64,000 bases of DNA from Leptolyngbya ohadii IS1 (GTDB lineage Bacteria > Cyanobacteriota > Cyanobacteriia > Elainellales > Elainellaceae). Location: the NCBI RefSeq assembly GCF_002215035.1, contig NZ_NKFP01000006.1:261083-325082 (forward strand). The letters run 5' to 3'. A program made the position numbers and the translations under genes. The notes under the pieces were generated by a model. The model saw only the letters and a list, made by a program, of their open reading frames with translations, was not told the DNA's origin and made no database searches. Shown one piece after another: positions 16,063 to 53,977 of the stretch (positions within the stretch are counted from its first letter, which is position 1; the number at the start of each line of letters is the position of its first letter).

Positions 16063-17090
16063 TCTCCCACTGCAATCGAGTATTTTACGATATTTAATAG
16101 TCCCCCATTTATGGGGGATTTAGGGGGCGACAAGGCAGCTCACTCAGGCAAACTCGACTTGTATAGATACAGTTATAGATACAGTAGGCAGTCTACTCTC
16201 TGTCGATTACGCTTCAACCCCTCACTCGATCTCCCCTCACAGACGATCGCCCAACTATAGCCAATTCCCAACAGAATCGCACGACTTTTTATGACGCAAA
16301 TCTTAAGGGAGTTGGTAGAGTTCTTGATTTCGCTACGATCCTGACTTATCATGCTCAGGTGTCAATCGCTAGCTTACAATTCAAGCTGGTTTATCGGTTT
16401 AGTAGGGGTCAAATTCTCGGTCGGCTTTATCGTTAGTCGGATTCATTCGTTCAGATTGTTGCTGAAGTTCCCGCGTTGAAGACCGCGCACCGAAAGTTCT
16501 CGAAGTAAAATTTCTGCATTAATTCAGCTTTTTAGATCAGGATTATTCGAGCTAATTCCGTTTAGCAGTGGCTCATTCGCTCAGTTGCGCTCAGTTACTA
16601 CGCCCAGCTATTACCCCCAGTTGAATTAAACCTACTGGTATTTCTTTTGACATCGTCACAGCATTGCCCTGCGAAGCCTATTGATTAGGTTCGTTTTGAA
16701 TCTTCGCCTGTTTAAAAAACGCAGCTTTCAAGTTCAAGCTGATCCTCCAGCCGATATTTTGGAATCATTTTGCGTCGATCGCTTTTCATCGAGTTAGCGA
16801 TTCAGCTTGCTATTTTCGAGAAATACAACTCATCCCTGGAGAAATAGGGGATGCAAATTCACGATGCGAGAAATCGGAAGTTGGGGTTAGAAATCCCTTA
16901 GATTTTCCTTATAAAAGCTTCTTACACTCATTAAGTGATTTCCTACTGCTCGCACTTTCGATCGCCTTCAGTCAACCATCACATCTTGGTAAGAAACCCC
17001 TACTTAAAACAGTCGATTCACGCAGAATTTACTGACTTTTGCCGCAAATAAACGGCTCATTCACTGTCTCTTGTACTTGGTGCTTCATCT
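16063..17090. promoter_or_regulatory. Long noncoding region upstream of the PstS-DUF4912 gene
   Basis: About 1 kb with no convincing ORF. A CCCCCATTTATGGGGGATTT-type dispersed repeat lies at 16102-16130. The rest is AT-rich, lacks tRNA-like folds that I can recognise, and probably contains a long 5' leader and promoter for the gene at 17091. A phosphate-responsive Pho box (direct repeats of a CTTAACC-like heptamer) was looked for but not convincingly found. Confidence 0.4.
16102..16130. repeat. Dispersed CCCCCA/TGGGGG repeat, copy 1
   Basis: Hairpin CCCCCATTTATGGGGG followed by ATTTAGGGGGC. Related copies occur near 19690, 26567, 26718, 40330-40490 and 50395. Common as intergenic repeats in cyanobacteria. 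Confidence 0.75.
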
Positions 17091-19661
17091 ATGTCAAAAA
17101 ACAAAAACCGCTCTCCTGGCTTAACCCGATCTCTTGCCTCGATCGCCGCTGCTCCGCTCCTCCTCCTGCCGATGGGAGTACAGGCTCGTGAGCTGCTGAT
17201 TGCTCAGGCTCCTAATTCTGCTCCTGCTTTCCAGCTTCCCAGTTCTTTGCCGAATGGGACGAGCGTTAAGGTGGACGGCTCTAGCAGCATGATTGTCTCC
17301 AACGAAGGCTTGAAGCAGAGATACGAAGCTCAGTTTCCCGGAACCCAGGTTAACCTGGCAACGGGTGGTACAGATGCCGCTCTCAATGCTCTTTCCGAAG
17401 GCACAATCGACATTGCCGCGATCGGACGGCTACTCACCGACGCCGAGAAAGCGCAGGGTTTGCAGCAGGTACCCCTGAGCCGCGAAAAGATTGCCATTAT
17501 CGTCGGTTCCGACAATCCCTTTCAAGCTAGCCTTACCGCCGAGCAGTTCGCGCGAATTTTCCGGGGTGAAATTACCAACTGGTCAGAGGTTGGCGGTCCC
17601 AATGCCCCCATCCGGTTTGTCGATCGCCCGGAATCTAGCGACACCCGCCAGGCGCTCAGCCGTTATCCGGTCTTCCAAAATGCGCCTTTCCAAACTGGAG
17701 CAACCGCAACCCAGGCAGCAGACGACACCGCTGCAATTATTGAGGAACTGGGGACAGATGGCATTAGCTACGCTCCTGTCAGCCAGGTTCCCGACCAGCC
17801 CGGTGTGCGAATTCTGCCGATGCACGACACTCTGCCCACCGATCCGCGCTATCCCTATTCCCAGCCTCGCAACTATGTCTACAAGGGCAATGCGACCCCG
17901 GCTGTTCTGGCATTCTTAGGATTTGTGACCTCTGCACCAGGACAAGAGGCGATCGCAGCAGCCCCTCCCGCAGCTCCGGCTCCCAGTCCTGAAGCAGCAG
18001 CGGCTCCAGCAGCAGTTCCGGCTCCCGATACCCCTACGGCAACAACCGCTCCGGCTCCTGATCCGACTGCGGCGGCAACCGCCCCTATAGCCGAAACAAC
18101 TCCCGCGAACCTGTCCCGTCTCTGGTGGCTCCTCCTACCGCTGTTGGGCTTGCCCCTGCTGCTGTGGTTCCTGAAGGGCAAGGGTGCGGCAGTTCCCCCC
18201 GTAGCTGCGGCTGCGGCTGAGCGGAAAGGACGAATCATTCTTACCCCGCGAGATTGCCGTAATGCCTATGCCTACTGGGAAGTTCCGGACGGAGAATTTG
18301 CAGAGGCTCGTCGTCAGGGAGGTCGGGATCTGAAGGTTCGTGTCTATGACGTGACCGACATTCCCAACATGGATCGGCAGCGTCCCCACAGCATGAAGGA
18401 ATTTGACTGTGCTGCTAACGCCAGAGATCTCCACGTGCCGATCGCCCTGGACAACCGGGATTACCTGGCTGAGCTAGGCTACACCACCGCAGACAACGAG
18501 TGGATTCCGATCGCTCGATCGAGCCATGTGCGTGTGCCTGCCTGTGTTCCTTCGGGCAATGGCAAAGGTCTGGGGACGGCTGCGGTGGTGGGAGGAACTG
18601 CGGCTGCGGCAGTGGCAGGCGTTTCGGCGGCAAAAGCGATCGCCCCCACTCAGCGAGTTCTTCAGCCCAGCCGGATGATTCTCGTTCCCCGTACCCCAGA
18701 AAAGGGCTATGCCTACTGGGAAGTCCCGGAAGCCCGCAAAGCGGAACTGAAGCAGGAAGGCGGCGAGAAGCTCATGCTGCGTCTCCACGATGTCACCGAT
18801 AAATCAACTGACGCCCACACCGTTCGCTATTTTGAGTGCGACGAAACGGCATCGGATCTACACCTGCCCCTCACGCCCGATCGCGACTACGTGGCGGAAC
18901 TGGGCTATATGACGAAGGACAATCGCTGGCTCAGCCTGGCAAAAGCCGATGCGGTTCATGCACCTGCCGATATTCAGGGCACCTTTAAGCCCGTCAAGCG
19001 ATTTTCGCCGGAGGAGGAAGCCGCTAAAATCACGGCTCTTAAAGCACCTGAACCCGAAGTAGGCATGATGGGACGCCTCGGTGAACTGGCGGGAGGAACA
19101 ACCAATCGGGTGACTGATCTGGCAGGGGATGCCCGCAAGGGGACGGCAAATCTGCTGGAGAAAGTGACCAACACCACCACGAACCTGGCAGGCAATACCA
19201 CTGCGGCAATGGGCGCGGCGATCGCGGGGGGTACGGCTGCGGTGGCAGGGGCTGCCAGTGGGGCGAAGTCCCTCCTGAATCGGCAAACCTCCGAAGCAGG
19301 CAGTTCCGAAGCAGTCAAAAAGTTTGAGCAGCCGCAGGACTGCCGCATTATTCTGGTGCCGCGCAACTCCAAAGATGCCTATGCCTACTGGGAAGTTTCG
19401 GAATCCTACAAGAAAGTGCTACGGGAGCAGGGTGGAACTCGGCTGATGCTGCGGGTTCACGATGCCACGAATATCGACATCGACGATCAACCGCCCCATA
19501 GTACCCAGACTTACCCCTGCAAGGAAACCGACCAGGATAAGCACGTCGCCATTCCGGTGAGCGATCGCGACTACATTGCCGAAATCGGCTACTTCACAGA
19601 GGACGATCGATGGCTGCGGCTGATTCGCTCCTTCCATGTCCATGTGCCAGCAGGCAACTAG
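17091..19661 (+). CDS. PstS-like substrate-binding protein fused to three DUF4912 domains
   Basis: 856 residues. A Sec-type signal peptide (about 1-33, ending near VQA) precedes a PBP-like phosphate-binding domain of the PstS type (about 45-285), with VDGSSSMIV as the ligand loop, then LATGGTDAAL, FRGEITNW and RPESSDTRQAL. An Ala/Pro linker (about 285-343) and one membrane helix (about 346-365, WWLLLPLLGLPLLLWFL) lead to three DUF4912 units near 380-480, 525-625 and 755-850. Each starts RIILxPR and contains AYAYWEVP and DYxAELGY. Ala/Gly-rich linkers separate them. If the signal peptide is cut, the binding domain is outside and the DUF4912 units inside the membrane, suggesting a transmembrane sensor rather than a transporter component. 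No pst transporter genes are nearby. Function inferred. Confidence 0.85.
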   Translation: MSKNKNRSPGLTRSLASIAAAPLLLLPMGVQARELLIAQAPNSAPAFQLPSSLPNGTSVKVDGSSSMIVSNEGLKQRYEAQFPGTQVNLATGGTDAALNALSEGTIDIAAIGRLLTDAEKAQGLQQVPLSREKIAIIVGSDNPFQASLTAEQFARIFRGEITNWSEVGGPNAPIRFVDRPESSDTRQALSRYPVFQNAPFQTGATATQAADDTAAIIEELGTDGISYAPVSQVPDQPGVRILPMHDTLPTDPRYPYSQPRNYVYKGNATPAVLAFLGFVTSAPGQEAIAAAPPAAPAPSPEAAAAPAAVPAPDTPTATTAPAPDPTAAATAPIAETTPANLSRLWWLLLPLLGLPLLLWFLKGKGAAVPPVAAAAAERKGRIILTPRDCRNAYAYWEVPDGEFAEARRQGGRDLKVRVYDVTDIPNMDRQRPHSMKEFDCAANARDLHVPIALDNRDYLAELGYTTADNEWIPIARSSHVRVPACVPSGNGKGLGTAAVVGGTAAAAVAGVSAAKAIAPTQRVLQPSRMILVPRTPEKGYAYWEVPEARKAELKQEGGEKLMLRLHDVTDKSTDAHTVRYFECDETASDLHLPLTPDRDYVAELGYMTKDNRWLSLAKADAVHAPADIQGTFKPVKRFSPEEEAAKITALKAPEPEVGMMGRLGELAGGTTNRVTDLAGDARKGTANLLEKVTNTTTNLAGNTTAAMGAAIAGGTAAVAGAASGAKSLLNRQTSEAGSSEAVKKFEQPQDCRIILVPRNSKDAYAYWEVSESYKKVLREQGGTRLMLRVHDATNIDIDDQPPHSTQTYPCKETDQDKHVAIPVSDRDYIAEIGYFTEDDRWLRLIRSFHVHVPAGN

Positions 19662-19861
19662 ACAAAGCGGATGTCGTCGATCCTCCAGCATTGGGGGATT
19701 TAGAGGGCGTCCATGTGCCAGCCGGCAGCTAGGCAGTAGCCAGGCAAATCCGATCGGCAGGCAAACCAGGCGAATCGATCGGGGAAGGAGGCAGGCTTCC
19801 TAGCTTAGTTCCTTCCCCCAAGAGGGGCGAAATTCTTCCCTGACGATCGCTAACTGACTTC

Positions 19862-19904: not shown

Positions 19905-20414
19905 ATGGGACTGTTTTTCGACGTACTGAGCGCTATCAACAATCCGAGCCAGCAGGGCAGTGTGACGCAGCTTGAGAACATCACCAGCACGATGCAACAG
20001 CTTGCCACAACCCAGGGACTTGATGCCAGCAAAATGCAGTCTATCCTGGCTGCCGCAGGCGGAATGATTGGTCCAGCAATGCAAAATCGTCAGGGTAGCT
20101 TACCCGGTGAAAATCAGCTGGGCAACCTGCTCGGACAAATCACCGGAACGGGCGCACCCGCAACTGCCCTTTCTGCCCTCTTCCCGCCCCAGGTACAGCA
20201 GCAGCTTATCCAGGGAGTGGCGCAAAAAGCAGGCATCAACGCCAGCATGATTCAGGGAATGCTGCCTACCCTGCTACCTGCGATCATGGGACTGCTGAAC
20301 ATGGGGTCTTCCAGCGGCGGCGGCACGAATTCTCTGTTGACCAGCTTCCTGAGCGGCAACAACGATCTGGGTGAAGTCTTCAAGTTTGCCAACCGCTTCT
20401 TGAATCCGGCGTAG
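19905..20414 (+). CDS. DUF937 (YidB-like) family protein
   Basis: 169 residues; strong ribosome site AGAGGAAATCATC. The protein is rich in Gln, Gly and Met, with helical blocks typical of DUF937 (MGLFFDVLSAINNP, MQSILAAAGGMIGPAM, LLPTLLPAIMGLLNMG). No signal peptide. The family function is unknown; members are small and helical. It lies 243 bp after the PstS-DUF4912 gene in the same orientation and is followed by a clear terminator, so it is the last gene of this block. Confidence 0.75.
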   Translation: MGLFFDVLSAINNPSQQGSVTQLENITSTMQQLATTQGLDASKMQSILAAAGGMIGPAMQNRQGSLPGENQLGNLLGQITGTGAPATALSALFPPQVQQQLIQGVAQKAGINASMIQGMLPTLLPAIMGLLNMGSSSGGGTNSLLTSFLSGNNDLGEVFKFANRFLNPA

Positions 20415-42852: not shown

Positions 42853-43872
42853 ATGAAAACCCATTGGTCGAAGATTCTGCTATTCGTTACAGCAACATCG
42901 GTTCTCACCACAGGTCTTCTGAACCTCCTTACCGCACAGGCACAGGCAAAAAACCAAACTCAACTTCAAGCCCAACCCCCCGCAGAAGTTCAGCAGCCAG
43001 CCCGCGACGACGAATCTGATGAGGCTGCCTTGCCGCTGGTCTGCCTGGGCATGGGTTACGCAGAGCAGGAACCGGAGCAGGACAACGCCGCTCATTTAGG
43101 ATTGGGCAGCGTGCAATCCAGCAAGCTTCATTCAATCAAACCGTCCATCTTTACGGGGCAGCAACCAAAATCCGCAATCCTCCCAGGTCAGGTAGGTTGG
43201 GGAACCCTTCAGCAACTCGGCAAGGGAACAACCGCTTCACTTCAACTCCTTCTAACCCGGAATACTGATTTAGCTCAAAATTCTTCGGAGCAGAATCATT
43301 TAGATCGAAATACAGCAACCGATCGCAGCCAGGACGACGATGATGGGCTATTTGCCCCTGGTTTTAATGCAGGTCGGGTCTGTGACATTCTCAGCTTAGC
43401 GGTTCTAACACCTGCCCTTCTTGTCCCCAATACCGGGGCTTCCTCATCCGGAGACACGGTGCCCTCTGGAACAAATCCCCAAGATCCGATCGATCGACCC
43501 ACCAATCCCACCGACTCGATCGGTCAGCCCCCTTCTTCCAACCTATCTTCCAATCCCCCCTCCGAGGGCTTACTGAACCAGTCCGCAACTGTCTTAACCA
43601 CCTCCCAACCCCCCGCAGAAGTTCAGCAGCCAGCCCGCGACGACGAATCTGATGAGGCTGCCTTGCCGCTGGTCTGCCTGGGCATGGGTTACGCAGAGCA
43701 GGAACCGGAGCAGGACAACGCCGCTCATTTAGGATTGGGCAGCGTGCAATCCAGCAAGCTTCATTCAATCAAACCGTCCATCTTTACGGGGCAGCAACCA
43801 AAATCCGCAATCCTCCCAGGTTTCCTGGCGATCCCGTATAGTCAGAAACTTTCGTCACCGGAATTCCGGTGA
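42853..43872 (+). CDS. Secreted hypothetical protein carrying a 218 bp exact duplication
   Basis: 339 residues from the ATG at 42853 (MKTHWSKILLFVTATSVLTT), which starts a Sec signal peptide cut near AQA; a longer frame from 42766 also exists. The mature part has no recognisable domain and is Gln/Pro/Ser-rich. The 218 bp segment 42971-43188 is repeated in frame at 43604-43821 (PPAEVQQPARDDESDEAAL). The ORF then runs into a palindrome that also forms the truncated start of purH, so its C-terminus (FLAIPYSQKLSSPEFR) is very probably artificial. The true gene end is uncertain. Confidence 0.45.
   Translation: MKTHWSKILLFVTATSVLTTGLLNLLTAQAQAKNQTQLQAQPPAEVQQPARDDESDEAALPLVCLGMGYAEQEPEQDNAAHLGLGSVQSSKLHSIKPSIFTGQQPKSAILPGQVGWGTLQQLGKGTTASLQLLLTRNTDLAQNSSEQNHLDRNTATDRSQDDDDGLFAPGFNAGRVCDILSLAVLTPALLVPNTGASSSGDTVPSGTNPQDPIDRPTNPTDSIGQPPSSNLSSNPPSEGLLNQSATVLTTSQPPAEVQQPARDDESDEAALPLVCLGMGYAEQEPEQDNAAHLGLGSVQSSKLHSIKPSIFTGQQPKSAILPGFLAIPYSQKLSSPEFR
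42971..43188. repeat. 218 bp direct repeat, copy 1
   Basis: Identical to 43604-43821 as far as I can read (offset 633). Both copies begin at CCCAACCCCCCGCAG and end at CTCCCAGGT. Confidence 0.9.
43604..43821. repeat. 218 bp direct repeat, copy 2
   Basis: Second copy, ending directly before the palindrome at 43825. In frame with copy 1 within the same ORF. Confidence 0.9.
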
Positions 43873-43902
43873 CGAAAGTTTCTGACTATACGGGATCGCC
43901 AG
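43825..43902. repeat. 78 bp perfect palindrome at the purH start
   Basis: Two 39 bp arms (43825-43863 and 43864-43902) meet at GGAATTCC. The right arm is the purH coding sequence for PVTKVSDYTGSPE; the left arm is its inverted copy. Fold-back structure. Confidence 0.9.
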
Positions 43903-45311
43903 AAATCCTGGGCGGACGGGTCAAAACTCTGCATCCGCGAATTCACGGCGGCATTCTGGCACGGCGGGATGTGCCGCAGGATCTCACTGACCTGGAAGCA
44001 AACCAGATTAATCCGATCGACCTGATTGTGGTCAACCTCTACCCGTTTCAGCAAACGATCGCCAAACCGGGCGTTACCCGACCGGAAGCGATCGAGCAAA
44101 TTGACATTGGAGGTCCGGCAATGGTGCGAGCCTCCGCCAAAAACTTTGCCCATGTGACGATTCTCTGCAACCCCAATCAGTACGGCAGCTACCTGGAAGA
44201 ACTGCGGCAAAACGGAAGTCCTTCGATCGCCTTTCGGCAAAACTGTGCGCTGCAAGCCTTTGAGCATACCTCGGCATACGACCGGGCGATCGCGGATTAT
44301 TTGCTCAAGCAGGGGAGCGGGGGAGCGGGGGAGCAGGGAGCAGGGGAGCAGGGAGAGGGTTTGCCCGATCGGTTTAGCCTTAGCGGCGAGAAGATGCAGC
44401 AGTTGCGCTACGGCGAGAATCCCCATCAGCCTGCGGCGTGGTATCAAACCAGTCCGAGCGGCTGGACAGCAGCAAAACAGTTGCAAGGCAAAGAGCTGAG
44501 CTACAACAATCTGGTGGATCTGGAGGCGGCGCGGCGCATTGTGGCAGAATTTCCTGTTTCAGCTCCGGATTCTGAAGCGGCTGCGGTGATTATTAAACAC
44601 ACCAATCCCTGTGGCGTGGCGTTGGGCAGTTCGCTGGTAGAGGCGTACACGAAGGCATTTAACGCTGATTCCACCTCTGCGTTTGGCGGCATTGTGGCAC
44701 TGAATCGATCGATCGACGCTGCCACCGCTAATGAACTTAAGAAGACCTTCCTGGAATGTATTGTCGCTCCGGGCTGTGATGCAGAAGCGGCGGAAATTTT
44801 GGCGGCAAAATCGAATCTGCGGGTGCTGGTATTGCCGGATCTGACCCAGGGGGAGAAAGAGCTGGTACGTCAGATTGCGGGCGGATTCCTCATCCAAACC
44901 GCTGATGACCAGATCGCTAACCCAACCGAGTGGAAAGTTGTCACCGATCGCCAGCCCACCGAGTCCCAGCTTGCCGAACTGCTGTTTGCCTGGAAGGTCT
45001 GCAAGCACGTTAAATCCAATGCCATTGTAATAACCCGCGATCGCACGACGCTGGGCGTTGGGGCAGGGCAGATGAACCGCGTTGGCTCCGTCAAAATTGC
45101 CCTGGAGCAGGCAGGCGATCAAAGTCAGGGGGCAATCCTTGCCAGCGATGGCTTTTTCCCGTTCGATGATTCCGTGAGAACCGCAGCCGCAGCAGGCATT
45201 GGAGCAATCGTTCAGCCGGGGGGCAGTATGCGCGATGCAGAATCGATCGCAGCCGCAAACGAATTGGGCATTGTAATGGTACTAACGGGAATCAGACACT
45301 TTTTGCACTAG
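43869..45311 (+). CDS. purH: Bifunctional AICAR transformylase/IMP cyclohydrolase, 5'-truncated
   Basis: About 480 residues. Catalyses the last two steps of purine synthesis (AICAR formylation, then ring closure to IMP). KVSDYTGSPEILGGRVKTLH, HGGILARRD and VVNLYPFQQT are the IMP cyclohydrolase part; SFAYGENPHQ-like LRYGENPHQPAAW, then NPCGVALG, DSTSAFGGIVALN and QMNRVGSVKIA mark the transformylase. The normal first 40 or so residues are missing, replaced by the palindrome; the frame begins at GTG 43869. A low-complexity insert (QGSGGAGEQGAGEQGEG) from a GGGGAGCA tract interrupts the linker near residue 150, in frame. Activity of this truncated form is doubtful unless the assembly is wrong here. 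Confidence 0.9.
   Translation: MTKVSDYTGSPEILGGRVKTLHPRIHGGILARRDVPQDLTDLEANQINPIDLIVVNLYPFQQTIAKPGVTRPEAIEQIDIGGPAMVRASAKNFAHVTILCNPNQYGSYLEELRQNGSPSIAFRQNCALQAFEHTSAYDRAIADYLLKQGSGGAGEQGAGEQGEGLPDRFSLSGEKMQQLRYGENPHQPAAWYQTSPSGWTAAKQLQGKELSYNNLVDLEAARRIVAEFPVSAPDSEAAAVIIKHTNPCGVALGSSLVEAYTKAFNADSTSAFGGIVALNRSIDAATANELKKTFLECIVAPGCDAEAAEILAAKSNLRVLVLPDLTQGEKELVRQIAGGFLIQTADDQIANPTEWKVVTDRQPTESQLAELLFAWKVCKHVKSNAIVITRDRTTLGVGAGQMNRVGSVKIALEQAGDQSQGAILASDGFFPFDDSVRTAAAAGIGAIVQPGGSMRDAESIAAANELGIVMVLTGIRHFLH
44311..44360. repeat. GGGGAGCA tandem tract within purH
   Basis: AGGGGAGCGGGGGAGCGGGG and continuing variants, inserted in frame between the two domains of purH. Confidence 0.85.
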
Positions 45312-45356
45312 TTTGGATTCTTTGTTTCAAAACAGTCGTTTCATGCCAGGTCGCCC

Positions 45357-46247
45357 ATGTCGCAATTCCAGGATTTGCCAGAAGTCGTCAAAGTCACCCT
45401 GCTCCTGTCGGGCGGGCAGCAGTATCAGGTTGCGATCCAGTCGGGCAATCCGCTGCTGGGTCAGCTCTTTGAAGTGATGGCAGACTGGGAAGGCAAACGA
45501 GTGCGGCGACTGTTCCAAATTCCGATTAATCAGGGGCAGGCGGTATTGGCGTTTCCGTGCGATCGTCTCATTGGCATCGTCACCGAACCGCCGATCGTCA
45601 TGCAAACTCAGAGCAACCCGCCGATCGCCGCAGCCCCCAATCAGCCTGTCACCCCTTCTGGAATTTTGCCGTCGGAATCCGTTCAGATTGATGACTTTTT
45701 ATCCCCGGAAGATCATCAAATGCTGCTGAACTACGTTCTAGAACGTGAGGAAAAATTTGTCCCCACCACAACTTCAACCGGGCTGGCAGACTATCGGCAA
45801 TCTATTGTACTGTACGATTTCCCAGAAGTTCACGAATTCATCACCAATCGGATTCGCGCGATCGTTCCCGATGTCGTCAAAGCCCTGGGTCTGCCGCCGT
45901 TCACTCTTCAAGAAATCGAAGCGCAAATTACCGCCCACAACGATGGCAATTTCTACCGCGTTCACAACGATAACGGCAGTCCGGAAACCGCAACCCGCGA
46001 ACTCACCTACGTTTACTATTTCTACCGTCAGCCCAAAGCCTTCTCCGGCGGAGAGCTAGTGATCTACGACAGCAAAATTGAAAACAACTACTTCGTTCAG
46101 GCAGATACTTTCCAGACGATCGATCCTAGAGACAACAGTATTGTTCTCTTCCTCAGCCGCTATATGCATGAGGTTATGCCCGTACATTGTCCCTCGCGAT
46201 CGTTTGAAGACAGTCGCTTTACGGTCAACGGCTGGATTCGCCGCTAA
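45357..46247 (+). CDS. 2-oxoglutarate/Fe(II)-dependent oxygenase (prolyl 4-hydroxylase-like)
   Basis: 296 residues. The N-terminal about 80 residues are a small beta region; the C-terminal about 105-296 form the 2OG-Fe(II) domain. His203 and Asp205 lie in RVHNDNGSPETATRELTYVY, His271 in RYMHEVMPV, and Arg287 (2OG-binding) in EDSRFTVNGWIRR, giving the complete iron facial triad. Hydroxylates an unidentified substrate, perhaps a protein residue. It starts 46 bp after purH and could be co-transcribed. Confidence 0.87.
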   Translation: MSQFQDLPEVVKVTLLLSGGQQYQVAIQSGNPLLGQLFEVMADWEGKRVRRLFQIPINQGQAVLAFPCDRLIGIVTEPPIVMQTQSNPPIAAAPNQPVTPSGILPSESVQIDDFLSPEDHQMLLNYVLEREEKFVPTTTSTGLADYRQSIVLYDFPEVHEFITNRIRAIVPDVVKALGLPPFTLQEIEAQITAHNDGNFYRVHNDNGSPETATRELTYVYYFYRQPKAFSGGELVIYDSKIENNYFVQADTFQTIDPRDNSIVLFLSRYMHEVMPVHCPSRSFEDSRFTVNGWIRR

Positions 46248-46294
46248 TCAATATTTTCCAAAACAAAGTCATTTTCTGAAATAAAGTGATTATT

Positions 46295-46412
46295 CCCCGT
46301 TCCAATGCTCCGCGTTGGAATGCGTGTGGGAAGCTCTGCCTCCAGATCCGATAAGCTAGCGGCAGAGCCGCCTCCGAACCGCATTTAGGCTGAGCCCAGA
46401 CACCAGAGTTAC
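46295..46412. repeat. Dispersed repeat, CTCTGCGTTGGAAT family, copy 3
   Basis: TCCAATGCTCCGCGTTGGAA hairpin, then GCTCTGCCTCCAG, GCGGCAGAG, GGCTGAGCCCAGACACCAGA. Closest in block content to copy 1. It occupies most of the 323 bp convergent spacer 46248-46570. Confidence 0.85.
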
Positions 46413-46570
46413 CGGATCTTTTATTCTGTAATGATGAAGAAAGCAAAAATCCCCTGATCTTCGTTATCGAATCGATCGGGGGATGCATATGAAACTTTTG
46501 CAGAAAAAGAGCATTAATAGACTTACAGGATGCGTTAGAACAGCGTAACGCATGAATATCGTCAGCCTAG

Positions 46571-47170
46571 CTACACTGAACCCTTTGCGCCCAGTTCGGT
46601 CAAATCCGCAGTGGATTCAGCCGCAGCCCGCTCCTTATCCAACCGACGCTTCCGCGCATAGAACTGAATAATTGCCGCCATTGCCACAATCATTGCCAGG
46701 ATGCTCCAAGCTGCTGCCGAGGTGGGAAAGCTATTTTTGAAAACTGCCAGCATAATAATCGCGACAAAAAACACGGTCGGGATTTCGTTAAACCAGCGAA
46801 ACTGCTGCCCGGTAAAGCGAAATTCGCCTCGCGCCATTTGCTTCATTAGCCGTAAGCAGTAGTGATCGTAGATCAACATACAAACGACAAGTGCGATTTT
46901 AACGTGTAGCCAGCGTTCCTGAAGTAGCGCAGGCACAGTAATAACCATTGCGATCGCCATTGTCAGCGTCAACACTAGAGCTGGCGTCATAATCAGCCGA
47001 TACAGCCGCTTTTCCATCACCTGATATTGCTGCTGCAAAATCGATCGAGCGGGTTCGGACTGCTCGTTGGCTTCGGCATGGTACACAAACAGCCGGGGTA
47101 GGTAAAACAATCCAGCGAACCAAGCCACAATACCAACAATATGAAACGCTTTGAACCAGAGATATGTCAT
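46571..47170 (-). CDS. hemJ: Protoporphyrinogen IX oxidase HemJ
   Basis: 199 residues with about four membrane helices. HemJ oxidises protoporphyrinogen IX to protoporphyrin IX in heme and chlorophyll synthesis. LWFKAFHIVGIVAWFAGLFY carries the conserved N-terminal His and Trp; PRLFVYHAEA the second His; RWLHVKIALVV and GQQFRWFNEIPT the later conserved motifs. The charged C-terminus (RKRRLDKERAAAES) is probably cytoplasmic. The start at 47170 agrees with the family N-terminus. Together with ycf54 it belongs to the tetrapyrrole functions of the window. Confidence 0.92.
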   Translation of the reverse strand: MTYLWFKAFHIVGIVAWFAGLFYLPRLFVYHAEANEQSEPARSILQQQYQVMEKRLYRLIMTPALVLTLTMAIAMVITVPALLQERWLHVKIALVVCMLIYDHYCLRLMKQMARGEFRFTGQQFRWFNEIPTVFFVAIIMLAVFKNSFPTSAAAWSILAMIVAMAAIIQFYARKRRLDKERAAAESTADLTELGAKGSV

Positions 47171-47276
47171 GGGATGTCTTTATCTATTATCCAGCCCTCA
47201 TTGTATCGAGTGGAAAGGGGATCAAGATAGATGGAAAGGCAGCCCCAGCGACAGGAATTCACAAAGTTTAATAGGC

Positions 47277-47501
47277 TTATACAGCGTGCTTGAACAGGGT
47301 ATCGAGATAAACTCTGGCAGCTCGGCGATAGCTGCGGGAAGAATCCGGCGCAGCACTAGTGCCGTTTTGCAGCAAGAAGAGAGAGAGAGCAGCACAGAAA
47401 ACCCGATCCTGATCCCAGTCGGGGTGCGTTTCCAGATAGCTTTGAAGCGATTCGTGCAGTTCTTCGGGAATTTCCGCCAGGATGCTAACCGTTGCTTGCA
47501 T
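47277..47501 (-). CDS. DUF2811 family small protein
   Basis: 74 residues from the ATG at 47501 (MQATVSILAEIPEELHESLQ); a longer frame from 47636 reads into the inverted repeat and is not credible. The helical ETHPDWDQDRVFCAALSLFL and AARVYLDTLF match DUF2811, a cyanobacterial family of unknown function. Soluble. Same strand as hemJ, 106 bp upstream of it, so possibly co-transcribed. Sequence beyond about 47620 upstream is part of the rearranged region, so the promoter may be disrupted. Confidence 0.78.
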   Translation of the reverse strand: MQATVSILAEIPEELHESLQSYLETHPDWDQDRVFCAALSLFLLQNGTSAAPDSSRSYRRAARVYLDTLFKHAV

Positions 47502-47619
47502 GGGAACCTCGTTAGAGAAGAGATAAGTGTAAAAGATATCGTCAAACGCTTCGGATGAAGCAGATTTATTTTGGGAGCACGCCAATCTCTGAACCGGAAA
47601 AGATTGCGATCGTTTATCC

Positions 47620-47935
47620 CAGGGAAGAAACTGCAACGAATCACAGTCTCAAAATCACAGCTCAAAGCAGAGCTAACCCAACCTCCTGGAACCCTGCTGA
47701 TCCGTGCTGGAACAGGCTTGAGTCGCTTCGGCGAGATGCTCTTGTCTTTGGTGGTCGCATCATTTTGCGCTATGGGGGGGTAGGGTTGTCAATGCCAATT
47801 TTTTGTGGCATGAAATTCGCTTTCAAATATCCTTCACGAAGGAATGAGGGTTTCAGGCTAATTTTTGTTGCATTTCTTAACAATACACTTCCCGATTCCC
47901 GTAAAACGCCCAGTTCTTCAGTAATCCCCAGGAAT
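47620..47935. repeat. 316 bp inverted repeat, left arm
   Basis: Reverse complement of 48194-48509 as far as I can read. Outer border CAGGGAAGAAACTG; inner border ATCCCCAGGAAT. Contains no recognised gene. Confidence 0.9.
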
Positions 47936-47965
47936 TCCCCAACCCCTGATATCACCGTTTCAGCC

Positions 47966-48028
47966 TGTGGAAAACCCAGTTTAAAGCTGTGGAAAACTAT
48001 TCACTGCCTGTGGAAAGCTTGTGGAATA
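47966..48028. promoter_or_regulatory. DnaA-box cluster, oriC candidate (copy 1)
   Basis: Four sites in a row: TGTGGAAAA at 47966-47974 and 47988-47996, TGTGGAAAG at 48009-48017, TGTGGAATA at 48020-48028. The complement TTTTCCACA is the DnaA-box form used in cyanobacteria. Spacing is 11 to 22 bp. AT-rich sequence (AATTGTAAAGTTTTGTAAAG) follows, suitable as an unwinding element. No dnaA or dnaN is in the window, so it could also be a dnaA-type promoter. Confidence 0.6.
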
Positions 48029-48080
48029 GGTGGGGAAAAGCAGACCAATTGTAAAGTTTTGTAAAGATTCCTGGGGATTA
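47967..48080. repeat. 114 bp direct repeat with DnaA boxes, copy 1
   Basis: Identical to 48094-48207 (offset 127). Begins GTGGAAAACCCAG, ends CTGGGGATTA. Confidence 0.9.
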
Positions 48081-48093
48081 TCCTGTTGAAACA

Positions 48094-48207
48094 GTGGAAA
48101 ACCCAGTTTAAAGCTGTGGAAAACTATTCACTGCCTGTGGAAAGCTTGTGGAATAGGTGGGGAAAAGCAGACCAATTGTAAAGTTTTGTAAAGATTCCTG
48201 GGGATTA
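48094..48207. repeat. 114 bp direct repeat with DnaA boxes, copy 2
   Basis: Second copy. The first box has lost its leading T (AGTGGAAAA at 48093-48101); boxes 2-4 are repeated at 48115, 48136 and 48147. It overlaps the inner end of the right inverted arm. Confidence 0.9.
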
Positions 48208-48509
48208 CTGAAGAACTGGGCGTTTTACGGGAATCGGGAAGTGTATTGTTAAGAAATGCAACAAAAATTAGCCTGAAACCCTCATTCCTTCGTGAAGGAT
48301 ATTTGAAAGCGAATTTCATGCCACAAAAAATTGGCATTGACAACCCTACCCCCCCATAGCGCAAAATGATGCGACCACCAAAGACAAGAGCATCTCGCCG
48401 AAGCGACTCAAGCCTGTTCCAGCACGGATCAGCAGGGTTCCAGGAGGTTGGGTTAGCTCTGCTTTGAGCTGTGATTTTGAGACTGTGATTCGTTGCAGTT
48501 TCTTCCCTG
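48194..48509. repeat. 316 bp inverted repeat, right arm
   Basis: Inverted copy of 47620-47935. Directly joined at 48509/48510 to the inverted, partial pdxJ copy. Confidence 0.9.
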
Positions 48510-49105
48510 CCGGGAATGCAGGCTAGCAGGTACACGTTGCGGCGCGCCAGCCGATCTCGCGCATTTCCTCGTATTCCGCCAGCAATCTCCCGCCCACAGC
48601 CTTTTTCAAGGAAGGTTAGTTCCTGGGCACGGCTGGCATCGTCGTGGGCTTCCGCGTAGCGTCCGGTATGCAGTTCGATAAACTTGGCTTTGACGGTCGC
48701 AGCAGCATCAATCTGTGCTGGATCAGCATCGATAAACAGGCTGACGGGAATGTTTGCCTGCTGGAGGGCATTCACCACCTGTTCCATCCGACCAATCTGA
48801 CCTGCGACATCTAATCCGCCTTCAGTTGTCACTTCCTCCCGACGTTCGGGCACCAGCGTTACATAGTCCGGGCGAATATCCAGGGCAATCGCCACCATTT
48901 CATCGGTTGCCGCCATCTCTAAATTGAGATGGGTTCGCACGGTTTGACGCAACAGACGCACATCCCGATCCTGGATATGCCGTCGGTCTTCCCGCAAATG
49001 CACCGTAATGCCATCGGCTCCGGCAAGTTCCGCCAGGACAGCAGCCCCGATCGGATCAGGTTCAACGGTACGGCGTGCCTGCCGAATGGTTGCAACGTGG
49101 TCAAT
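48510..49105 (-). pseudogene. Inverted partial pdxJ copy (left arm of palindrome)
   Basis: 48596-49105 is the reverse complement of 49106-49615 (510 bp). The adjoining 48510-48595 still aligns with pdxJ (49616-49701) without gaps but with about 26 substitutions in 86 bp. In it, the conserved [10 protein letters not shown] has become [10 protein letters not shown], so the segment cannot encode a working PdxJ. The reading frame stays open into the next repeat. Confidence 0.85.
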
Positions 49106-49807
49106 ATTGACCACGTTGCAACCATTCGGCAGGCACGCCGTACCGTTGAACCTGATCCGATCGGGGCTGCTGTCCTGGCGGAACTTGCCGGAGCCGATGG
49201 CATTACGGTGCATTTGCGGGAAGACCGACGGCATATCCAGGATCGGGATGTGCGTCTGTTGCGTCAAACCGTGCGAACCCATCTCAATTTAGAGATGGCG
49301 GCAACCGATGAAATGGTGGCGATTGCCCTGGATATTCGCCCGGACTATGTAACGCTGGTGCCCGAACGTCGGGAGGAAGTGACAACTGAAGGCGGATTAG
49401 ATGTCGCAGGTCAGATTGGTCGGATGGAACAGGTGGTGAATGCCCTCCAGCAGGCAAACATTCCCGTCAGCCTGTTTATCGATGCTGATCCAGCACAGAT
49501 TGATGCTGCTGCGACCGTCAAAGCCAAGTTTATCGAACTGCATACCGGACGCTACGCGGAAGCCCACGACGATGCCAGCCGTGCCCAGGAACTAACCTTC
49601 CTTGAAAAAGGCTGTCAGCAGGCGCTTGCTGCCGGAATTCGGGTGAATGCGGGACATGGTCTAACCTACTGGAACGTTTACCCGATCGCCTGCCTTCCCG
49701 GCATGGAAGAACTCAACATTGGGCACACCATTATCAGCCGTGCCGTTTTGGTGGGCATGGAACGAGCCGTGCGCGAAATGAAGCTGGCAATTCGGGGGGA
49801 GTTTTAG
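49097..49807 (+). CDS. pdxJ: Pyridoxine 5'-phosphate synthase, start altered by palindrome
   Basis: About 236 residues from GTG 49097 ([16 protein letters not shown]). Condenses 1-deoxy-D-xylulose-5-phosphate with 3-amino-2-oxopropyl phosphate to pyridoxine phosphate (vitamin B6). [56 protein letters not shown] and [15 protein letters not shown] are the TIM-barrel active-site motifs. The usual first few residues before VNIDHV are lost because the frame passes through the palindrome centre at 49105/49106; a longer open frame to 48929 is the inverted arm. It is followed by ycf54 at 163 bp, the same neighbour order as in Synechocystis. Confidence 0.9.
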
Positions 49808-49840
49808 GTCAACCCTGATCCGCTTTTCAATTCTAAATTT

Positions 49841-49902
49841 CCAGCCAAACTCCCAGCCAAACTCCCAGCCAAACTCCCAGCCAAACTCCCAGCTAAATTC
49901 CC
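49841..49902. repeat. 12 bp tandem repeat between pdxJ and ycf54
   Basis: Unit CAGCCAAACTCC repeated about five times, the last degenerate (CAGCTAAATTCC). Noncoding, within the probable pdxJ-ycf54 transcript. Confidence 0.85.
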
Positions 49903-49969
49903 AAGTCCAGAAAGGAATTCTCATAGTAATTCCAACTTGTAATCCCTTGTAAATTAAAACTTCAGGATC

Positions 49970-50299
49970 ATGACAACCTACTATTACGCCGTTGCCAGCC
50001 AGAAATACATGCTGGAGGAAGAGCCGACCGAGGAAGTCCTCAAAGAGCGGACGCGCCACTACCAGGAACAGGAAAAAGAGCGCGACTTTTGGCTGGTGCT
50101 TCAGCCCGCCTTCCTGGATGCCCCAGAACTGGCAGCGGTCAAAGCCAAGTGTCCCCAACCGGCAGCGGCGATCGTCTCTACAAATTCTCAGTTCATTACC
50201 TGGCTGAAGCTGCGCCTGGAATATGTGGCGACAGGTCAGTTTGAGGCTCCCTCTGCCACCATTCCCGACCCGATCGCGTCTCTGGCACCCACAGCGTAA
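49970..50299 (+). CDS. ycf54: Ycf54, Mg-protoporphyrin IX monomethyl ester cyclase accessory subunit
   Basis: 109 residues. TTYYYAVASQKYMLEEEPTEE, VLKERTRHYQEQEKERDFWL, FLDAPELAAVKAKCPQPAAA and STNSQFITWLKLRLEYV are conserved through the Ycf54/DUF2488 family. Ycf54 is required for the aerobic AcsF cyclase step of chlorophyll synthesis, where it stabilises the enzyme complex. Length matches cyanobacterial members. Its position after pdxJ supports the identification. Confidence 0.92.
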   Translation: MTTYYYAVASQKYMLEEEPTEEVLKERTRHYQEQEKERDFWLVLQPAFLDAPELAAVKAKCPQPAAAIVSTNSQFITWLKLRLEYVATGQFEAPSATIPDPIASLAPTA

Positions 50300-50545
50300 G
50301 AATCGCCTGAGTAGGGCTATTTGAGCCGCATTGTCGGTTCTGGATTGCCCCCTAAGATTCTCTATGGTGGGCATTAGTAGCGATTCTATATTGCCCCCTC
50401 AATCCCCCGATTCTGGGGGACTTTGTGTATTCGGGCGTTTTTGGGTACTGCTGAGCCGAACAAAGCGGCAATAAATATCCTGAACGCTCTGGCACTTCTG
50501 CGAAGTTTGAGTGATAATCTGCCTGTGTTCAAAGGATGGTTGGCA
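50300..50545. other. Spacer with dispersed CCCCC repeat
   Basis: ATTGCCCCCTAAGATTC and ATTGCCCCCTCAATCCCCCGA flank a CCGATTCTGGGGGACTTTG hairpin (50350-50425). These are members of the CCCCCA/TGGGGG family. No gene supported. Confidence 0.5.
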
Positions 50546-51547
50546 ATGAGGCAATCTGTGAAGCAATCCGTGAAGCAATCCGTGAGGCAATCTATGGGGC
50601 AGTCTGTCACCCAGCCCGTGAAGCAACGCTGGATCACCCGATCGCTTCTCTCTACCTCATTTTTCTTGACCTCATTTTTCTTAACCCCCGTGATGCTGGC
50701 TGCCATCCTTGGTCAAGCGGAACGGGCGATCGCGCAGTCCCTGCCCATCTGCGATCCACCCCGTGCAGATGAATATTTGCTGCTGGTGCGTAATCCCAAT
50801 GCTGATACCCAAAATCAGCTCCGTCAGCTGCTTCCCTCCAGTGCAGTCCTCACCGATTGTTTGTACGACAGCAATCCGGTTGTGCGAGTTGAGGGATTTG
50901 TGAGCGCGGAAATTGCCAATGCCTGGGCGCAATACCTCAGCAATAGTGCCGGACTTCAGGCGATCGTTGCCCGTCCTCCCGCCGTTGCTGCAAATTCCCC
51001 TGCCACCCCTTCGACTCCTTCGGCAGCTTCCGCAACAGAAGCAAATTCCACAGCCAATTCGGGGGCAAATTCTACCGCTTCCGCAGCCACAAACTTTCCC
51101 AGTCCAACCATCACACCCAGCCAACCTGCCCCAGCCAATCCACCCAGTACTCCCACTCCCCCGGCTCAACCTGCCCCAGCGACAGCGAATAGTCCGGCGA
51201 ATAATTCGGCGAATAATCCGGCAAGTAATCCGGCAAATAACCCAGCCCCTGCTCAACCAACAGCCACCGCAGCCCAGACTGCTTTCAATCCTCAGCCACT
51301 TGGCACCGGATATGCCGTAGTAGTGAACTATTTCAACCGTCCTGAAGTTGCGCTGGATGTGCAGCAAATCACCAGCCGAGAGGTGGGCTTAGTTGCGTTT
51401 GAGCAGCGTCCCTATCTGCTGGCAGCCTACACCCCCGATCCGGCAGCGGCTTCTGCGGTGCTGCGGAGTTTGACAGAGCGAGGATTGACGGCATCGATCG
51501 TGGATAGTCGAAGAGCAATTCTTCTGACCCCCTCTGTTGCCCGGTGA
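50546..51547 (+). CDS. Secreted protein with a SPOR-like C-terminus
   Basis: 333 residues from ATG 50546; a longer frame to 50423 covers a repeat and is less likely. The N-terminus carries 12 bp tandem repeats (QSVKQSVKQSVRQS), then a signal/anchor (FFLTSFFLTPVMLAAILG). A folded region (about 65-145, CDPPRADEYLLLVRNP) precedes a Ala/Asn/Pro/Thr-rich linker (about 150-255) with another short repeat (NSANNPASNPANNP), and a C-terminal SPOR-like region (GYAVVVNYFNRPEVALDVQQ to about 330). SPOR domains bind denuded peptidoglycan, hence possible septal localisation; this match is weak. Function unknown. Confidence 0.6.
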   Translation: MRQSVKQSVKQSVRQSMGQSVTQPVKQRWITRSLLSTSFFLTSFFLTPVMLAAILGQAERAIAQSLPICDPPRADEYLLLVRNPNADTQNQLRQLLPSSAVLTDCLYDSNPVVRVEGFVSAEIANAWAQYLSNSAGLQAIVARPPAVAANSPATPSTPSAASATEANSTANSGANSTASAATNFPSPTITPSQPAPANPPSTPTPPAQPAPATANSPANNSANNPASNPANNPAPAQPTATAAQTAFNPQPLGTGYAVVVNYFNRPEVALDVQQITSREVGLVAFEQRPYLLAAYTPDPAAASAVLRSLTERGLTASIVDSRRAILLTPSVAR

Positions 51548-51573
51548 GGGAATAACCTAGAAGAGGGAATAAC

Positions 51574-52029
51574 CTAATAGGCAGGCGACGCGATCCAAGA
51601 AATTGCCGCGCCCAGGGCAGAACCGACAATCACCTGAACAGGCGTGTGCCCCAACAGTTCCTTTAACCGATTCTCATTGAAGGTGGGGTTTTCGCGGAAT
51701 AGCTCATCCACGATCTGATTCAGAATTCGCGCCTGCTTCCCGGCCGCCTGCCGTACTCCGGCTGCATCGTACATCACAATTACAGCAAACACAAAGGCGA
51801 TCGCAAAATCGCTGCTTTCCCAGCCTGCCGTTTGTCCGATTCCTGCTGCCAGAGCCGTAACCAGCGCCGAGTGAGAGCTAGGCATTCCTCCCGTTTCTAC
51901 CAAAGTGCGAAAGTTAATTTTGCCGTCGCGAATCAAAGACACAAAGAGTTTGATGATCTGCGCCAGCAGGGAGGCAAGCAGCGCAACGAGCAGCACGTGG
52001 TTGTCAAGAATCGCGGGGAAGTCCTGCAT
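51574..52029 (-). CDS. Divergent PAP2 family protein (DUF212)
   Basis: 151 residues from the ATG at 52029; a TTG 15 bp upstream gives a slightly longer frame. About four membrane helices. GGMPSSHSALVTALA is the DUF212 signature, related to the PAP2 phosphatase SRxxxxxH motif. The end (LLGHTPVQVIVGSALGAAIS) is the last helix with its conserved His. Membrane phosphatase of unknown substrate. It is 42 bp downstream of crtE on the same strand and probably co-transcribed, as is common in cyanobacteria. Confidence 0.85.
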   Translation of the reverse strand: MQDFPAILDNHVLLVALLASLLAQIIKLFVSLIRDGKINFRTLVETGGMPSSHSALVTALAAGIGQTAGWESSDFAIAFVFAVIVMYDAAGVRQAAGKQARILNQIVDELFRENPTFNENRLKELLGHTPVQVIVGSALGAAISWIASPAY

Positions 52030-52071
52030 GATGGCTTGGGGCAAAGGTTTAGGGCAGTCGGGTGAGGCAGT

Positions 52072-52986
52072 CTAGTTTTTGCGGGCGGTGATGTAGTCAG
52101 CTAATGCCATCAGCGGATAGGCACGTTCTCCATAAATTTCCAGCTTTGCCTTTGCTTCACTCACCAGCTGATCCGCCTGACGCTTTGATTCCTCAATGCC
52201 CCAAAAGCTGGGATAGGTTGCCTTTTGCGCCTGTAAATCCTTACCTGCGGTTTTACCCAGTTCTTCCTGGGTCGCCGTGATATCCAGCACGTCATCAATG
52301 ATTTGGAACGCTAGCCCAATGTTCTGGGCATAGTCCGACAACCGCTGCCGATCGTCCTCACTTGCCCCCGCCAGAACTGCGCCGCAGACCACGGAAGCCT
52401 CTAGCAGTGCCCCAGTTTTATGGCGATGGATAAAGGTGAGCGTTTCGATCGTGACATCCGATCGCCCTTCGCACTCCAGATCCACCACCTGACCGCCCAC
52501 CAGTCCGGCTGCCCCCACGGCACGACCTAATCTGGCAATGACTTGCAGAACCCGATCGGCGCTTACCCCCTGCGTCTGGGTGGCAATAAACTCGAAGGCG
52601 TATGCCAGCAGTCCATCACCCGCCAGGATCGCGATATCTTCGCCGTAGACTTTGTGATTGGTGGGTTTGCCGCGCCGGAAGTCGTCATTGTCCATTGCGG
52701 GCAAATCGTCGTGGATCAGCGACATGGTGTGGATCATTTCCAGAGAACAGGCGGTTGGCATTGCCATTTCGGTCGTGCCGCCAATGAGTTCACAGGTTGC
52801 CAGACAAAGGATCGGACGCAGACGCTTGCCGCCCGCCATGAGCGAGTAGCGCATTGCTTCATAGATTTTTTCCGGGTAGACAACCGCGATCGATCGATCG
52901 AGTGCCGCCTCAACCTGTGCCTGCTGCGCTGCCAGATAGCGTTTCAGGTCAAACTCAAGATACTGCTGACTGTTGGTTGCAACCAT
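52072..52986 (-). CDS. crtE: Geranylgeranyl diphosphate synthase
   Basis: 304 residues. Adds isopentenyl units to make C20 geranylgeranyl diphosphate for carotenoids, phytol and quinones. First Asp-rich motif: [18 protein letters not shown] (DDxxxxD from residue 93); second: [19 protein letters not shown] and [11 protein letters not shown] also fit. The residue before the first motif region ([13 protein letters not shown]) has no large block, consistent with C20 chain length, but this was not tested. Followed by DUF212. Uses the MEP pathway product started by dxs. Confidence 0.93.
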
Positions 52987-53107
52987 GCTTTGATCCGCTG
53001 AACTGATTCTGTGAACAAACTGCTTGTCTCTGTACTGCGACTAGGGAGACTTGATAACTGCTGCGACTTTGTGACTGCTACAACTTTGCGACTATTGCGA
53101 CATTTAC

Positions 53108-53977
53108 TTATCGCGACATCCGCTGCCGATAACTCCATACTGTATTGTGCAACAGCATGGTCACAGTCATCGGTCCAATTCCGCCCGGAACCGGAGTAAT
53201 CCAGTCCGCCACGTCTTTCACTGTTTCATAATCCACGTCTCCCACCAGGCGAGATTTGCCGCTTGCCTCGTCGGTAACGCGATTGATTCCCACATCTACC
53301 ACAACCGCGCCCGGTTTCACCATTTCTGGCGTGATCAGATTCGGACGTCCCACTGCCGCCACCAGAATATCGGCGCTGCGGGTAATGGCACTCAGGTCAG
53401 GCGTGCGGGAATGGGCGATCGTTACAGTTGCATCCTCCGCCAGCAGCATCAGCGCCAGGGGTTTACCAACGAGAATACTGCGCCCGACTACCACCGCCTG
53501 TTTACCCTTCGCCGAAATGCCGTACTCCTGGAGCAGCCGCATCGATCCGGCAGGGGTACAGCTTTGCAGTCCCGGTTCTCCCCGCACCAGTCGTCCCAGA
53601 TTGACGGGATGCAGACCATCGGCATCTTTGTCTGGGTGGATTTGATTCAGTAGCGCCACGGAATCCAGGTGATCCGGCAGGGGAAGCTGCACCAGAATGC
53701 CGTCTACCCGATCGTCCTCATTCAATGCCTGGATGGTTTGCTCTAGTTCCGTCTGGGTTACCTCCGCCGGAAAATGTTGACCAAAAGAGGCAATGCCCAC
53801 CCGCGCACAAGCCTGCTCTTTGTTTCGCACATAGGCTGCACTGGCAGGATTATCGCCCACCATCAGCACTGCCAGCCCCGGAGGTCGTCCGTAGCGATCG
53901 CTCAGGGTCTTTACTTCGTCGGTCAGTTCTGCCTGAATTTTGGCGGCGAGTGCCTTGCCATCAAGAATGCCTGTCAT
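53108..53977 (-). CDS. folD: Bifunctional methylenetetrahydrofolate dehydrogenase/cyclohydrolase
   Basis: 289 residues from the ATG at 53977 ([18 protein letters not shown]); the frame extends upstream to 54196 but with no family homology. Interconverts methylene-, methenyl- and formyl-THF. [63 protein letters not shown] and VDVGINRV, then [18 protein letters not shown] are the family motifs. Supplies formyl-THF to PurH. It lies 121 bp upstream of crtE (same strand), so the operon folD-crtE-DUF212 is plausible. Confidence 0.95.

What the first reader, a model, noticed from the sequence alone, without database searches (positions are those of the whole stretch)
17091..19661. PstS-like binding domain tethered to three DUF4912 domains
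A periplasmic phosphate-type binding domain is joined through one membrane helix to three tandem DUF4912 domains. No pst transporter genes are nearby, so a sensor or signal-transfer role is more likely than uptake. It is flanked by other uncharacterised proteins (seven-repeat membrane protein, DUF3891, DUF937), all on one strand, which may form a functional block. Seen: the domain order and motifs. Inferred: topology and role.
Basis: partly seen in the sequence, partly recalled or inferred. Interest (0 to 1): 0.75.

Follow-up and report, generated by a model that had tools for sequence, protein, structure and literature searches.

The report
Membrane receptor with fibronectin-like cytosolic arms
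This cyanobacterial gene encodes a protein with a phosphate-binding-type domain outside the membrane, one membrane helix and three fibronectin-like domains probably inside the cell; it belongs to an unstudied family whose ligand pocket has changed, so it looks more like a sensor or tether than a part of a phosphate pump.

Summary
In detail: ORF 17091-19661 (856 aa) is signal peptide, PstS-type binding domain, Pro/Ala linker, one helix, three DUF4912 domains. It is not a one-off: 31 genomes (own included) of a 292-genome sample carry binding domain-helix-DUF4912 fusions, with 1-5 DUF4912 copies. Their binding domains form one clade apart from stand-alone relatives. DUF4912 is predicted as a fibronectin-III-like sandwich. 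Cysteines (1 in 14,964 residues of binding domains, 210 in 13,729 of DUF4912) and charge bias put DUF4912 in the cytosol. The phosphate reading is weakened: the glycine of the S-G-T phosphate turn is Asp/Glu in 61 of 64 fused rows, with linked changes nearby; the genome's pstS-pstB pair lies elsewhere. Of the neighbours, only the DUF937 gene is a recurrent partner (20 of 26 testable short-type loci, 0 of 30 long-type); DUF3891 and the 1,109-aa protein are not. Best reading: a single-helix receptor or tether that recruits cytosolic partners through non-enzymatic domains. Two relatives carry a glycogen phosphorylase that lacks the cofactor lysine. Ligand, topology and partner binding are untested by experiment.

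The parts
17091..19661 (+). gene for the 856-aa binding domain-helix-DUF4912x3 protein
17091..17207 (+). probable Sec signal peptide, residues 1-39 (hydrophobic core and a conserved A-Q before the mature start)
   Evidence: sequence; Ala38 invariant and Gln39 nearly invariant in alignment A2; no signal-peptide program was available
17250..17936 (+). PstS-type periplasmic binding domain (PBP_like_2), residues 54-282, with altered pocket (Gly112, Asp184)
17964..18119 (+). Pro/Ala-rich linker, residues 292-343, predicted disordered
   Evidence: sequence; pLDDT under 50 at 292-357
18120..18176 (+). single transmembrane helix, residues 344-362 (LWWLLLPLLGLPLLLWFLK)
   Evidence: hydropathy
18228..18557 (+). 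DUF4912 copy 1, residues 380-489, FN3-like
18663..18974 (+). DUF4912 copy 2, residues 525-628
19335..19655 (+). DUF4912 copy 3, residues 749-855
19905..20414 (+). DUF937 protein, 169 aa, no visible signal peptide; conserved neighbour and likely partner

Best explanation
A single-helix (bitopic) envelope receptor or tether. Outside: a PstS-type clamp that no longer works with a transporter and has a changed ligand pocket, on a flexible Pro/Ala stalk. Inside: a string of three fibronectin-III-like DUF4912 domains, without enzyme motifs, that serves as a docking arm. Its most likely cytosolic partner is the small DUF937 protein encoded next to it. Closing of the clamp on its ligand, or binding to something in the envelope, would change how the inner arm recruits or arranges partners. 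Shown by sequence or statistics: architecture, one clade, opposite compartments (indirectly), altered pocket, linked DUF937 gene, FN3-like fold (predicted model). Inferred: signal transfer, partner binding, ligand other than free phosphate.
For: Architecture in 57 ORFs besides the window's. Fused binding domains monophyletic: 63 sequences, no stand-alone one inside, support 0.941. Cys 1/14,964 against 210/13,729 residues; charge in>out 53, equal 10 (the window protein among them), out>in 0 of 63. All six Cys of the window protein lie in DUF4912 domains. DUF4912 also occurs behind Rho_N in proteins whose sequence shows no signal peptide. Pocket changes: D/E at 184 in 61 of 64 fused rows, Gly 17 of 20 stand-alone; D178 63 of 64 against N 18 of 20; R158 60 of 64 against Q 14 of 20; K133 61 of 64 against A 12 of 20; R186 64 of 64; Q258 62 of 64 against R 18 of 20. 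DUF937 adjacent in 20 of 26 short-type, 0 of 30 long-type loci. DUF4912 model pLDDT 94.8 and FN3 matches up to Z 10.0.
Against: No ligand, partner or topology experiment. R113, R179, S183 and T185 of the site are mostly kept (64, 59, 61, 53 of 64), so phosphate binding is not excluded. Asp at the turn can still offer its backbone NH. Six of 26 short-type loci lack the DUF937 neighbour. The full-length model is weak (mean pLDDT 70.4, pTM 0.38), so no domain arrangement is known. Scores below the NCBI PstS cut-offs are not special to the fused family: five of five stand-alone relatives tested are below too. A purely structural role without signalling fits as well.
Confidence: 0.5

Rival explanations
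1. Phosphate sensor: the domain binds phosphate as PstS does and reports its level to the cell interior through the helix.
For: Closest solved relatives are phosphate-binding or putative phosphate-binding proteins, 4gd5 with phosphate bound. Arg, Ser and Thr of the site are mostly conserved.
Against: Turn glycine replaced by Asp/Glu in 61 of 64 and other linked changes; Thr185 replaced by Leu, Val or Ile in 11 of 64; matches to a (recalled) Pho-box pattern occur at chance level in the window, 24 against 24.9 expected, none between 10,067 and 23,777.
Confidence: 0.2
2. Structural tether: the outer domain grips an envelope component and the inner FN3-like arm anchors a cytosolic assembly; no ligand switch.
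For: FN3-like arrays of variable number (1-5) and linkers of variable length; output modules of the clade lack intact enzymes among those scanned.
Against: Pocket residues stay strongly conserved (e.g. R113 and R186 in 64 of 64), which suggests a small ligand.
Confidence: 0.2
3. Substrate-binding protein of an uptake system (Pst or another ABC transporter) that is merely membrane-anchored.
For: Fold and family; the NCBI family name TIGR02136 is hit at 90.3 bits.
Against: 90.3 bits against a cut-off of 206.6, while two other binding proteins of the same genome pass one model each (L129 337.9 against 205; L130 291.3 against 206.6); pstB with its pstS (L129) lies at 3.98 Mb, the gene at 0.28 Mb of the 4.26-Mb contig; DUF4912 arrays have no place in uptake.
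Confidence: 0.06
4. DUF4912 domains are outside the membrane, as most FN3 domains are.
For: Nearest solved folds are extracellular FN3 domains.
Against: Cysteine density and charge bias; DUF4912 behind Rho_N in apparently cytosolic proteins.
Confidence: 0.04

Closest known systems
Sll0540 of Synechocystis PCC 6803 (PDB 9l8j, stand-alone putative phosphate-binding protein)
   Same: binding domain, 44% identity, TM-score 0.92-0.93 by target length
   Different: stand-alone; keeps S-G-T and S-R at the pocket (alignment) where the window protein has S-D-T and G-R
PstS of the Pst transporter (own-genome L129; phosphate-bound 4gd5)
   Same: fold; Arg, Ser and Thr of the site
   Different: no helix or DUF4912, coded near pstB, canonical S-G-T turn
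Rho_N-DUF4912 proteins (own-genome L006 and relatives in most cyanobacteria)
   Same: DUF4912 domain
   Different: no binding domain, no signal peptide visible, one DUF4912 copy
Bitopic bacterial receptors with a binding-protein sensor domain (histidine kinases, chemoreceptors; recalled, not searched)
   Same: outer clamp, membrane helix, inner module
   Different: inner module is FN3-like, with no kinase, cyclase, methyl-accepting or DNA-binding domain in the Pfam scan; one helix, not two flanking a sensor

Membership tests
PstS (Pst phosphate-binding protein) | PstS-type binding-protein fold | tested here: met
PstS (Pst phosphate-binding protein) | score over the curated NCBI PstS cut-offs | tested here: not met
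   TIGR02136 90.3 of 206.6, TIGR00975 27.7 of 205. Control: L129 and L130 of the own genome each pass one model; five of five stand-alone Sll0540-like proteins also miss (132.6-144.9 bits for TIGR02136)
PstS (Pst phosphate-binding protein) | the phosphate ligands of E. coli PstS (T10, F11, S38, D56, R135, S139, G140, T141; passage of PMC10846223) | tested here: not met
   alignment through L129: R135, S139, T141 kept as R179, S183, T185; S38 is T94; G140 is D184; D56 is R113, but Arg there is shared by 19 of 20 stand-alone rows. T10/F11 fall beside an alignment gap and are not judged
PstS (Pst phosphate-binding protein) | coded with pstCAB | tested here: not met
   (pstB and PstS-type genes searched; pstA and pstC not)
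PstS (Pst phosphate-binding protein) | binds phosphate | not testable with these tools
   needs binding assay
DUF4912 (PF16258) | score over the Pfam cut-off | tested here: met
   three stretches
FN3-like fold | structural match of a DUF4912 model to FN3 domains | tested here: met
   copy 3 only: pLDDT 94.8; 5dft_A Z 10.0, rmsd 3.1, 89 aligned, 8% identity; a shared fold, not proof of descent
bitopic receptor with binding-protein sensor | outer binding domain, one helix, cytosolic module | tested here: inconclusive
   hydropathy, charge and cysteine statistics agree; no experiment
bitopic receptor with binding-protein sensor | known output domain (kinase, GGDEF, methyl-accepting, HTH) | tested here: not met
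   none in the Pfam scan at E<=0.1 (the LysR_substrate hit is the binding fold)
DUF937 (PF06078), neighbour protein | score over the Pfam cut-off | tested here: met
   28.9 against 25.4 bits

The most novel reading that the evidence does not exclude
Cyanobacteria hold an unrecognised class of transmembrane receptors in which a phosphate-binding fold was repurposed once, with a rebuilt pocket (S-G-T to S-D/E-T and linked Lys/Arg/Asp changes), and then joined to inner modules that bind but do not catalyse: FN3-like DUF4912 arrays, a glycogen phosphorylase without its cofactor lysine, TPR repeats. They would connect the outer envelope to cytosolic assemblies, possibly of carbon stores, by recruitment and not by phosphorylation or second messengers.
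Probability: 0.3. Interest if true: 0.75.

Novelty: new variant of a known kind. Interest (0 to 1): 0.52.

Why it matters
Searches of the open-access full-text library found one paper that names DUF4912 (a cotton gene list) and two that name DUF937, and none on this fusion; subscription papers were not searchable. A receptor family in at least 31 of 292 sampled genomes of the phylum, with a predicted fold for its inner domain, a candidate partner and named pocket positions, can now be tested directly. It also warns that proteins named 'phosphate ABC transporter substrate-binding protein' in cyanobacteria may have nothing to do with phosphate uptake.

Tried and rejected
Pho regulon: a recalled cyanobacterial Pho-box pattern, up to 3 mismatches, matched at chance level and not near the gene; the pattern is from memory, so this is weak. 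Promoter and terminator scan: at chance level. Rfam: nothing at 15-21 kb. Mobile origin: no plasmid record covers 80% of the protein, 25 records match with low coverage, all under 60% identity; DUF4912 copy 3 has no match in phages. Solved relatives of DUF4912 by sequence: only two engineered proteins, over a 38-39-residue stretch, judged spurious. A link of DUF4912 to glycogen: suggested only by the phosphorylase fusions beside DUF4912 fusions (L077, L098) and sub-threshold Glucodextran_B hits in three Rho_N/DUF4912 proteins of the phylum; too thin to claim. A recalled fusion of DUF4912 with GH57 enzymes in Firmicutes was not tested. The paper behind 9l8j was not found. Short and long types are not clean clades on the tree, and several inner branches have low support.

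Weak points of my controls: the stand-alone set (20 rows) is my pick of part of the list; fused rows include one identical pair (L086/L102) and six ORFs without a DUF4912 of 60 aa or more, one of them cut by a contig end. Counts are not independent because the sequences are related. The helix finder took the most hydrophobic stretch before the first DUF4912, and picked an Ala/Gly stretch instead of the true helix in L106 and probably L111. Of the candidate fused places, 40 regions were fetched; G153, G078, G103, G233 and G051 were not, so 31 is a floor. Most short-type loci were found with the window protein as query, so they are near relatives.

Full report
Observation. The ORF is as described. 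The window lies in a cyanobacterium-phylum genome at C6:261083-325082. Pfam finds the binding domain and three DUF4912 stretches far above cut-off. The closest solved protein is Sll0540 of Synechocystis (9l8j), titled a putative phosphate binding protein. Papers that mention sll0540 (four; passages seen) list it as a PstS homologue without functional test in the passages seen.

Family. The own genome has DUF4912 in three proteins: this one (x3), a second binding domain-helix-DUF4912 protein of 1,169 aa (L007), and a Rho_N-DUF4912 protein of 508 aa (L006). In the phylum sample 154 of 292 genomes have DUF4912, many with the Rho_N type as judged from ORF length and the few scanned. Fetched regions and named-genome loci give 63 binding-domain ORFs over 370 aa (62 distinct), 57 of them with DUF4912 (16 with one copy, 17 with two, 19 with three, 2 with four, 3 with five); the window's is one more. 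They come from 31 genomes of the 292 sample (own included) and 20 named-genome loci, e.g. Fischerella, Chlorogloeopsis, Calothrix, Nostoc, Chroococcus. Two layouts occur: short type (DUF4912 soon after the helix; 27 distinct proteins, the window's included) and long type (long linker before DUF4912; 30).

Single origin. On a FastTree tree of 83 binding domains rooted on the own PstS (L129), the 63 fused sequences form one clade with no stand-alone sequence inside (support 0.941). Repeats keep their places: in 14 three-copy homologues, copy 1 is closest to window copy 1 in 13, copy 3 to copy 3 in 13, copy 2 to copy 2 in only 9.

Topology. Charge next to the helix is higher on the DUF4912 side in 53 of 63 proteins, equal in 10 (the window protein among them), never lower. 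Binding domains hold 1 Cys in 14,964 residues, DUF4912 domains 210 in 13,729; all six Cys of the window protein are in DUF4912 copies. DUF4912 is therefore most likely cytosolic.

Fold of DUF4912. The model of copy 3 from 57 aligned copies has pLDDT 94.8 and is an all-beta sandwich with one helix. Foldseek and the second aligner return FN3 domains (best Foldseek E 2.9e-4; 5dft_A Z 10.0, rmsd 3.1 over 89 residues, 8% identity). Trp21, Arg80, Gly87 and Trp95 of copy 3 are invariant in all 57. No solved relative was found by sequence. In the full-length model the binding domain and the three copies are well predicted and the linkers are not.

Pocket. E. coli PstS holds phosphate by T10, F11, S38, D56, R135, S139, G140 and T141 (passage of PMC10846223). 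Aligned through L129, R135, S139 and T141 correspond to R179, S183 and T185; G140 corresponds to D184. At 184 the 64 fused rows have D 56, E 5, G 2, L 1; the 20 stand-alone rows have G 17, S 2, N 1. Other contrasts: 112 G 54 of 64 against S 18 of 20; 178 D 63 against N 18; 158 R 60 against Q 14; 133 K 61 against A 12; 258 Q 62 against R 18; R186 in 64 of 64 against 5 of 20. Thr185 is Thr in 53, Leu in 9, Val 1, Ile 1. So the site is not decayed but changed in a concerted, conserved way, which argues for another ligand or an internal carboxylate in the oxyanion site. This is inference; kept Arg, Ser and Thr leave phosphate possible. The NCBI PstS models miss the window protein by far (90.3 of 206.6), but the control shows that five of five stand-alone relatives also miss (132.6-144.9), so this point carries little weight beyond saying that neither group is standard PstS.

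Context. Of the window neighbours only DUF937 recurs: it lies within 450 bp in 20 of 26 testable short-type loci (17 directly downstream on the same strand, 1 upstream, 2 downstream on the opposite strand), in none of 30 long-type loci and none of the ORFs without DUF4912 (L073 ends at its contig end and L102 duplicates L086, both left out). In the 292-genome sample 61 genomes have a DUF937 relative; only G000, G101 and G174, in all three of which the pair is adjacent, have two, the rest one. The seven best DUF937 scores belong to the seven genomes in which I found a short-type gene (G000, G101, G123, G174, G111, G080, G011), though in G123, G111, G080 and G011 the two genes are not adjacent (in G123 the fused gene is split between two contig ends). 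DUF3891, the 1,109-aa protein and four other window neighbours have no match (E<=1e-5) in the other loci. No plasmid or phage copy was found (phages with copy 3 only).

Relatives with other inner parts. L098:8762-13237 (G011, same family as the window genome) and L077:5249-9460 join the same binding domain and helix to TPR repeats and a glycogen phosphorylase. Each lies directly upstream of a short-type DUF4912 gene on the same strand. Both lack the lysine of the G-N-M-K-F cofactor motif that 11 of 11 stand-alone cyanobacterial phosphorylases keep (that this lysine carries the cofactor is recalled), so they are probably inactive. L094 has WD40 repeats before the helix and TPR after it. The picture is a receptor clade with non-catalytic inner modules.

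Mechanism. I commit to a bitopic receptor or tether that recruits partners (confidence 0.5). Shown: anatomy, clade, pocket change, partner gene, predicted fold. Inferred: compartment (strong), partner contact (moderate), ligand change and signal transfer (weak to moderate).

Novelty. Single-helix receptors with a binding-protein sensor are a known kind (recalled); the inner FN3-like array, the rebuilt pocket and the DUF937 partner make this a new variant. Searches of the paper library gave nothing on it (listings, and passages only of the papers named above and of PMC7713314).

Noticed in passing
window 42971-56932: Several exact direct repeats of 114-218 nt and a 606-nt inverted repeat with no spacer (48500-49711, 96% complementary) break or duplicate ends of housekeeping ORFs; this looks like local assembly error, well away from the finding.
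   Followed up: partly
L098:8762-13237 and L077:5249-9460: Binding domain-helix-TPR-glycogen phosphorylase fusions whose phosphorylase lacks the cofactor lysine, each directly upstream of a binding domain-DUF4912 gene.
   Followed up: yes
L094:4091-7699: Binding domain followed by WD40 repeats, then a membrane helix and TPR repeats, in one ORF of 1,202 aa.
   Followed up: no
L007:1504-3522: Downstream of the own-genome long-type paralogue, on the same strand, lies a multi-receiver response regulator (three receiver stretches, Trans_reg_C, Hpt).
   Followed up: no
L076, L077:9926-12802 and L082, C-terminal ends: A conserved domain of about 100 aa (two copies in L076) follows DUF4912; in L076 and L082 Pfam gave it no family over cut-off (L077:9926-12802 was not scanned).
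   Followed up: no
L093, L104, L105, L110, L111, L114, L120, L124, L125: A 366-378-aa ORF that looks like a MerR-type regulator (not scanned) lies upstream, same strand, of nine long-type genes.
   Followed up: no
window 16099-16130 and in 19680-19710: A dispersed repeat of about 30 nt flanks the gene on both sides; the upstream copy has some 34 relatives elsewhere in the genome.
   Followed up: no
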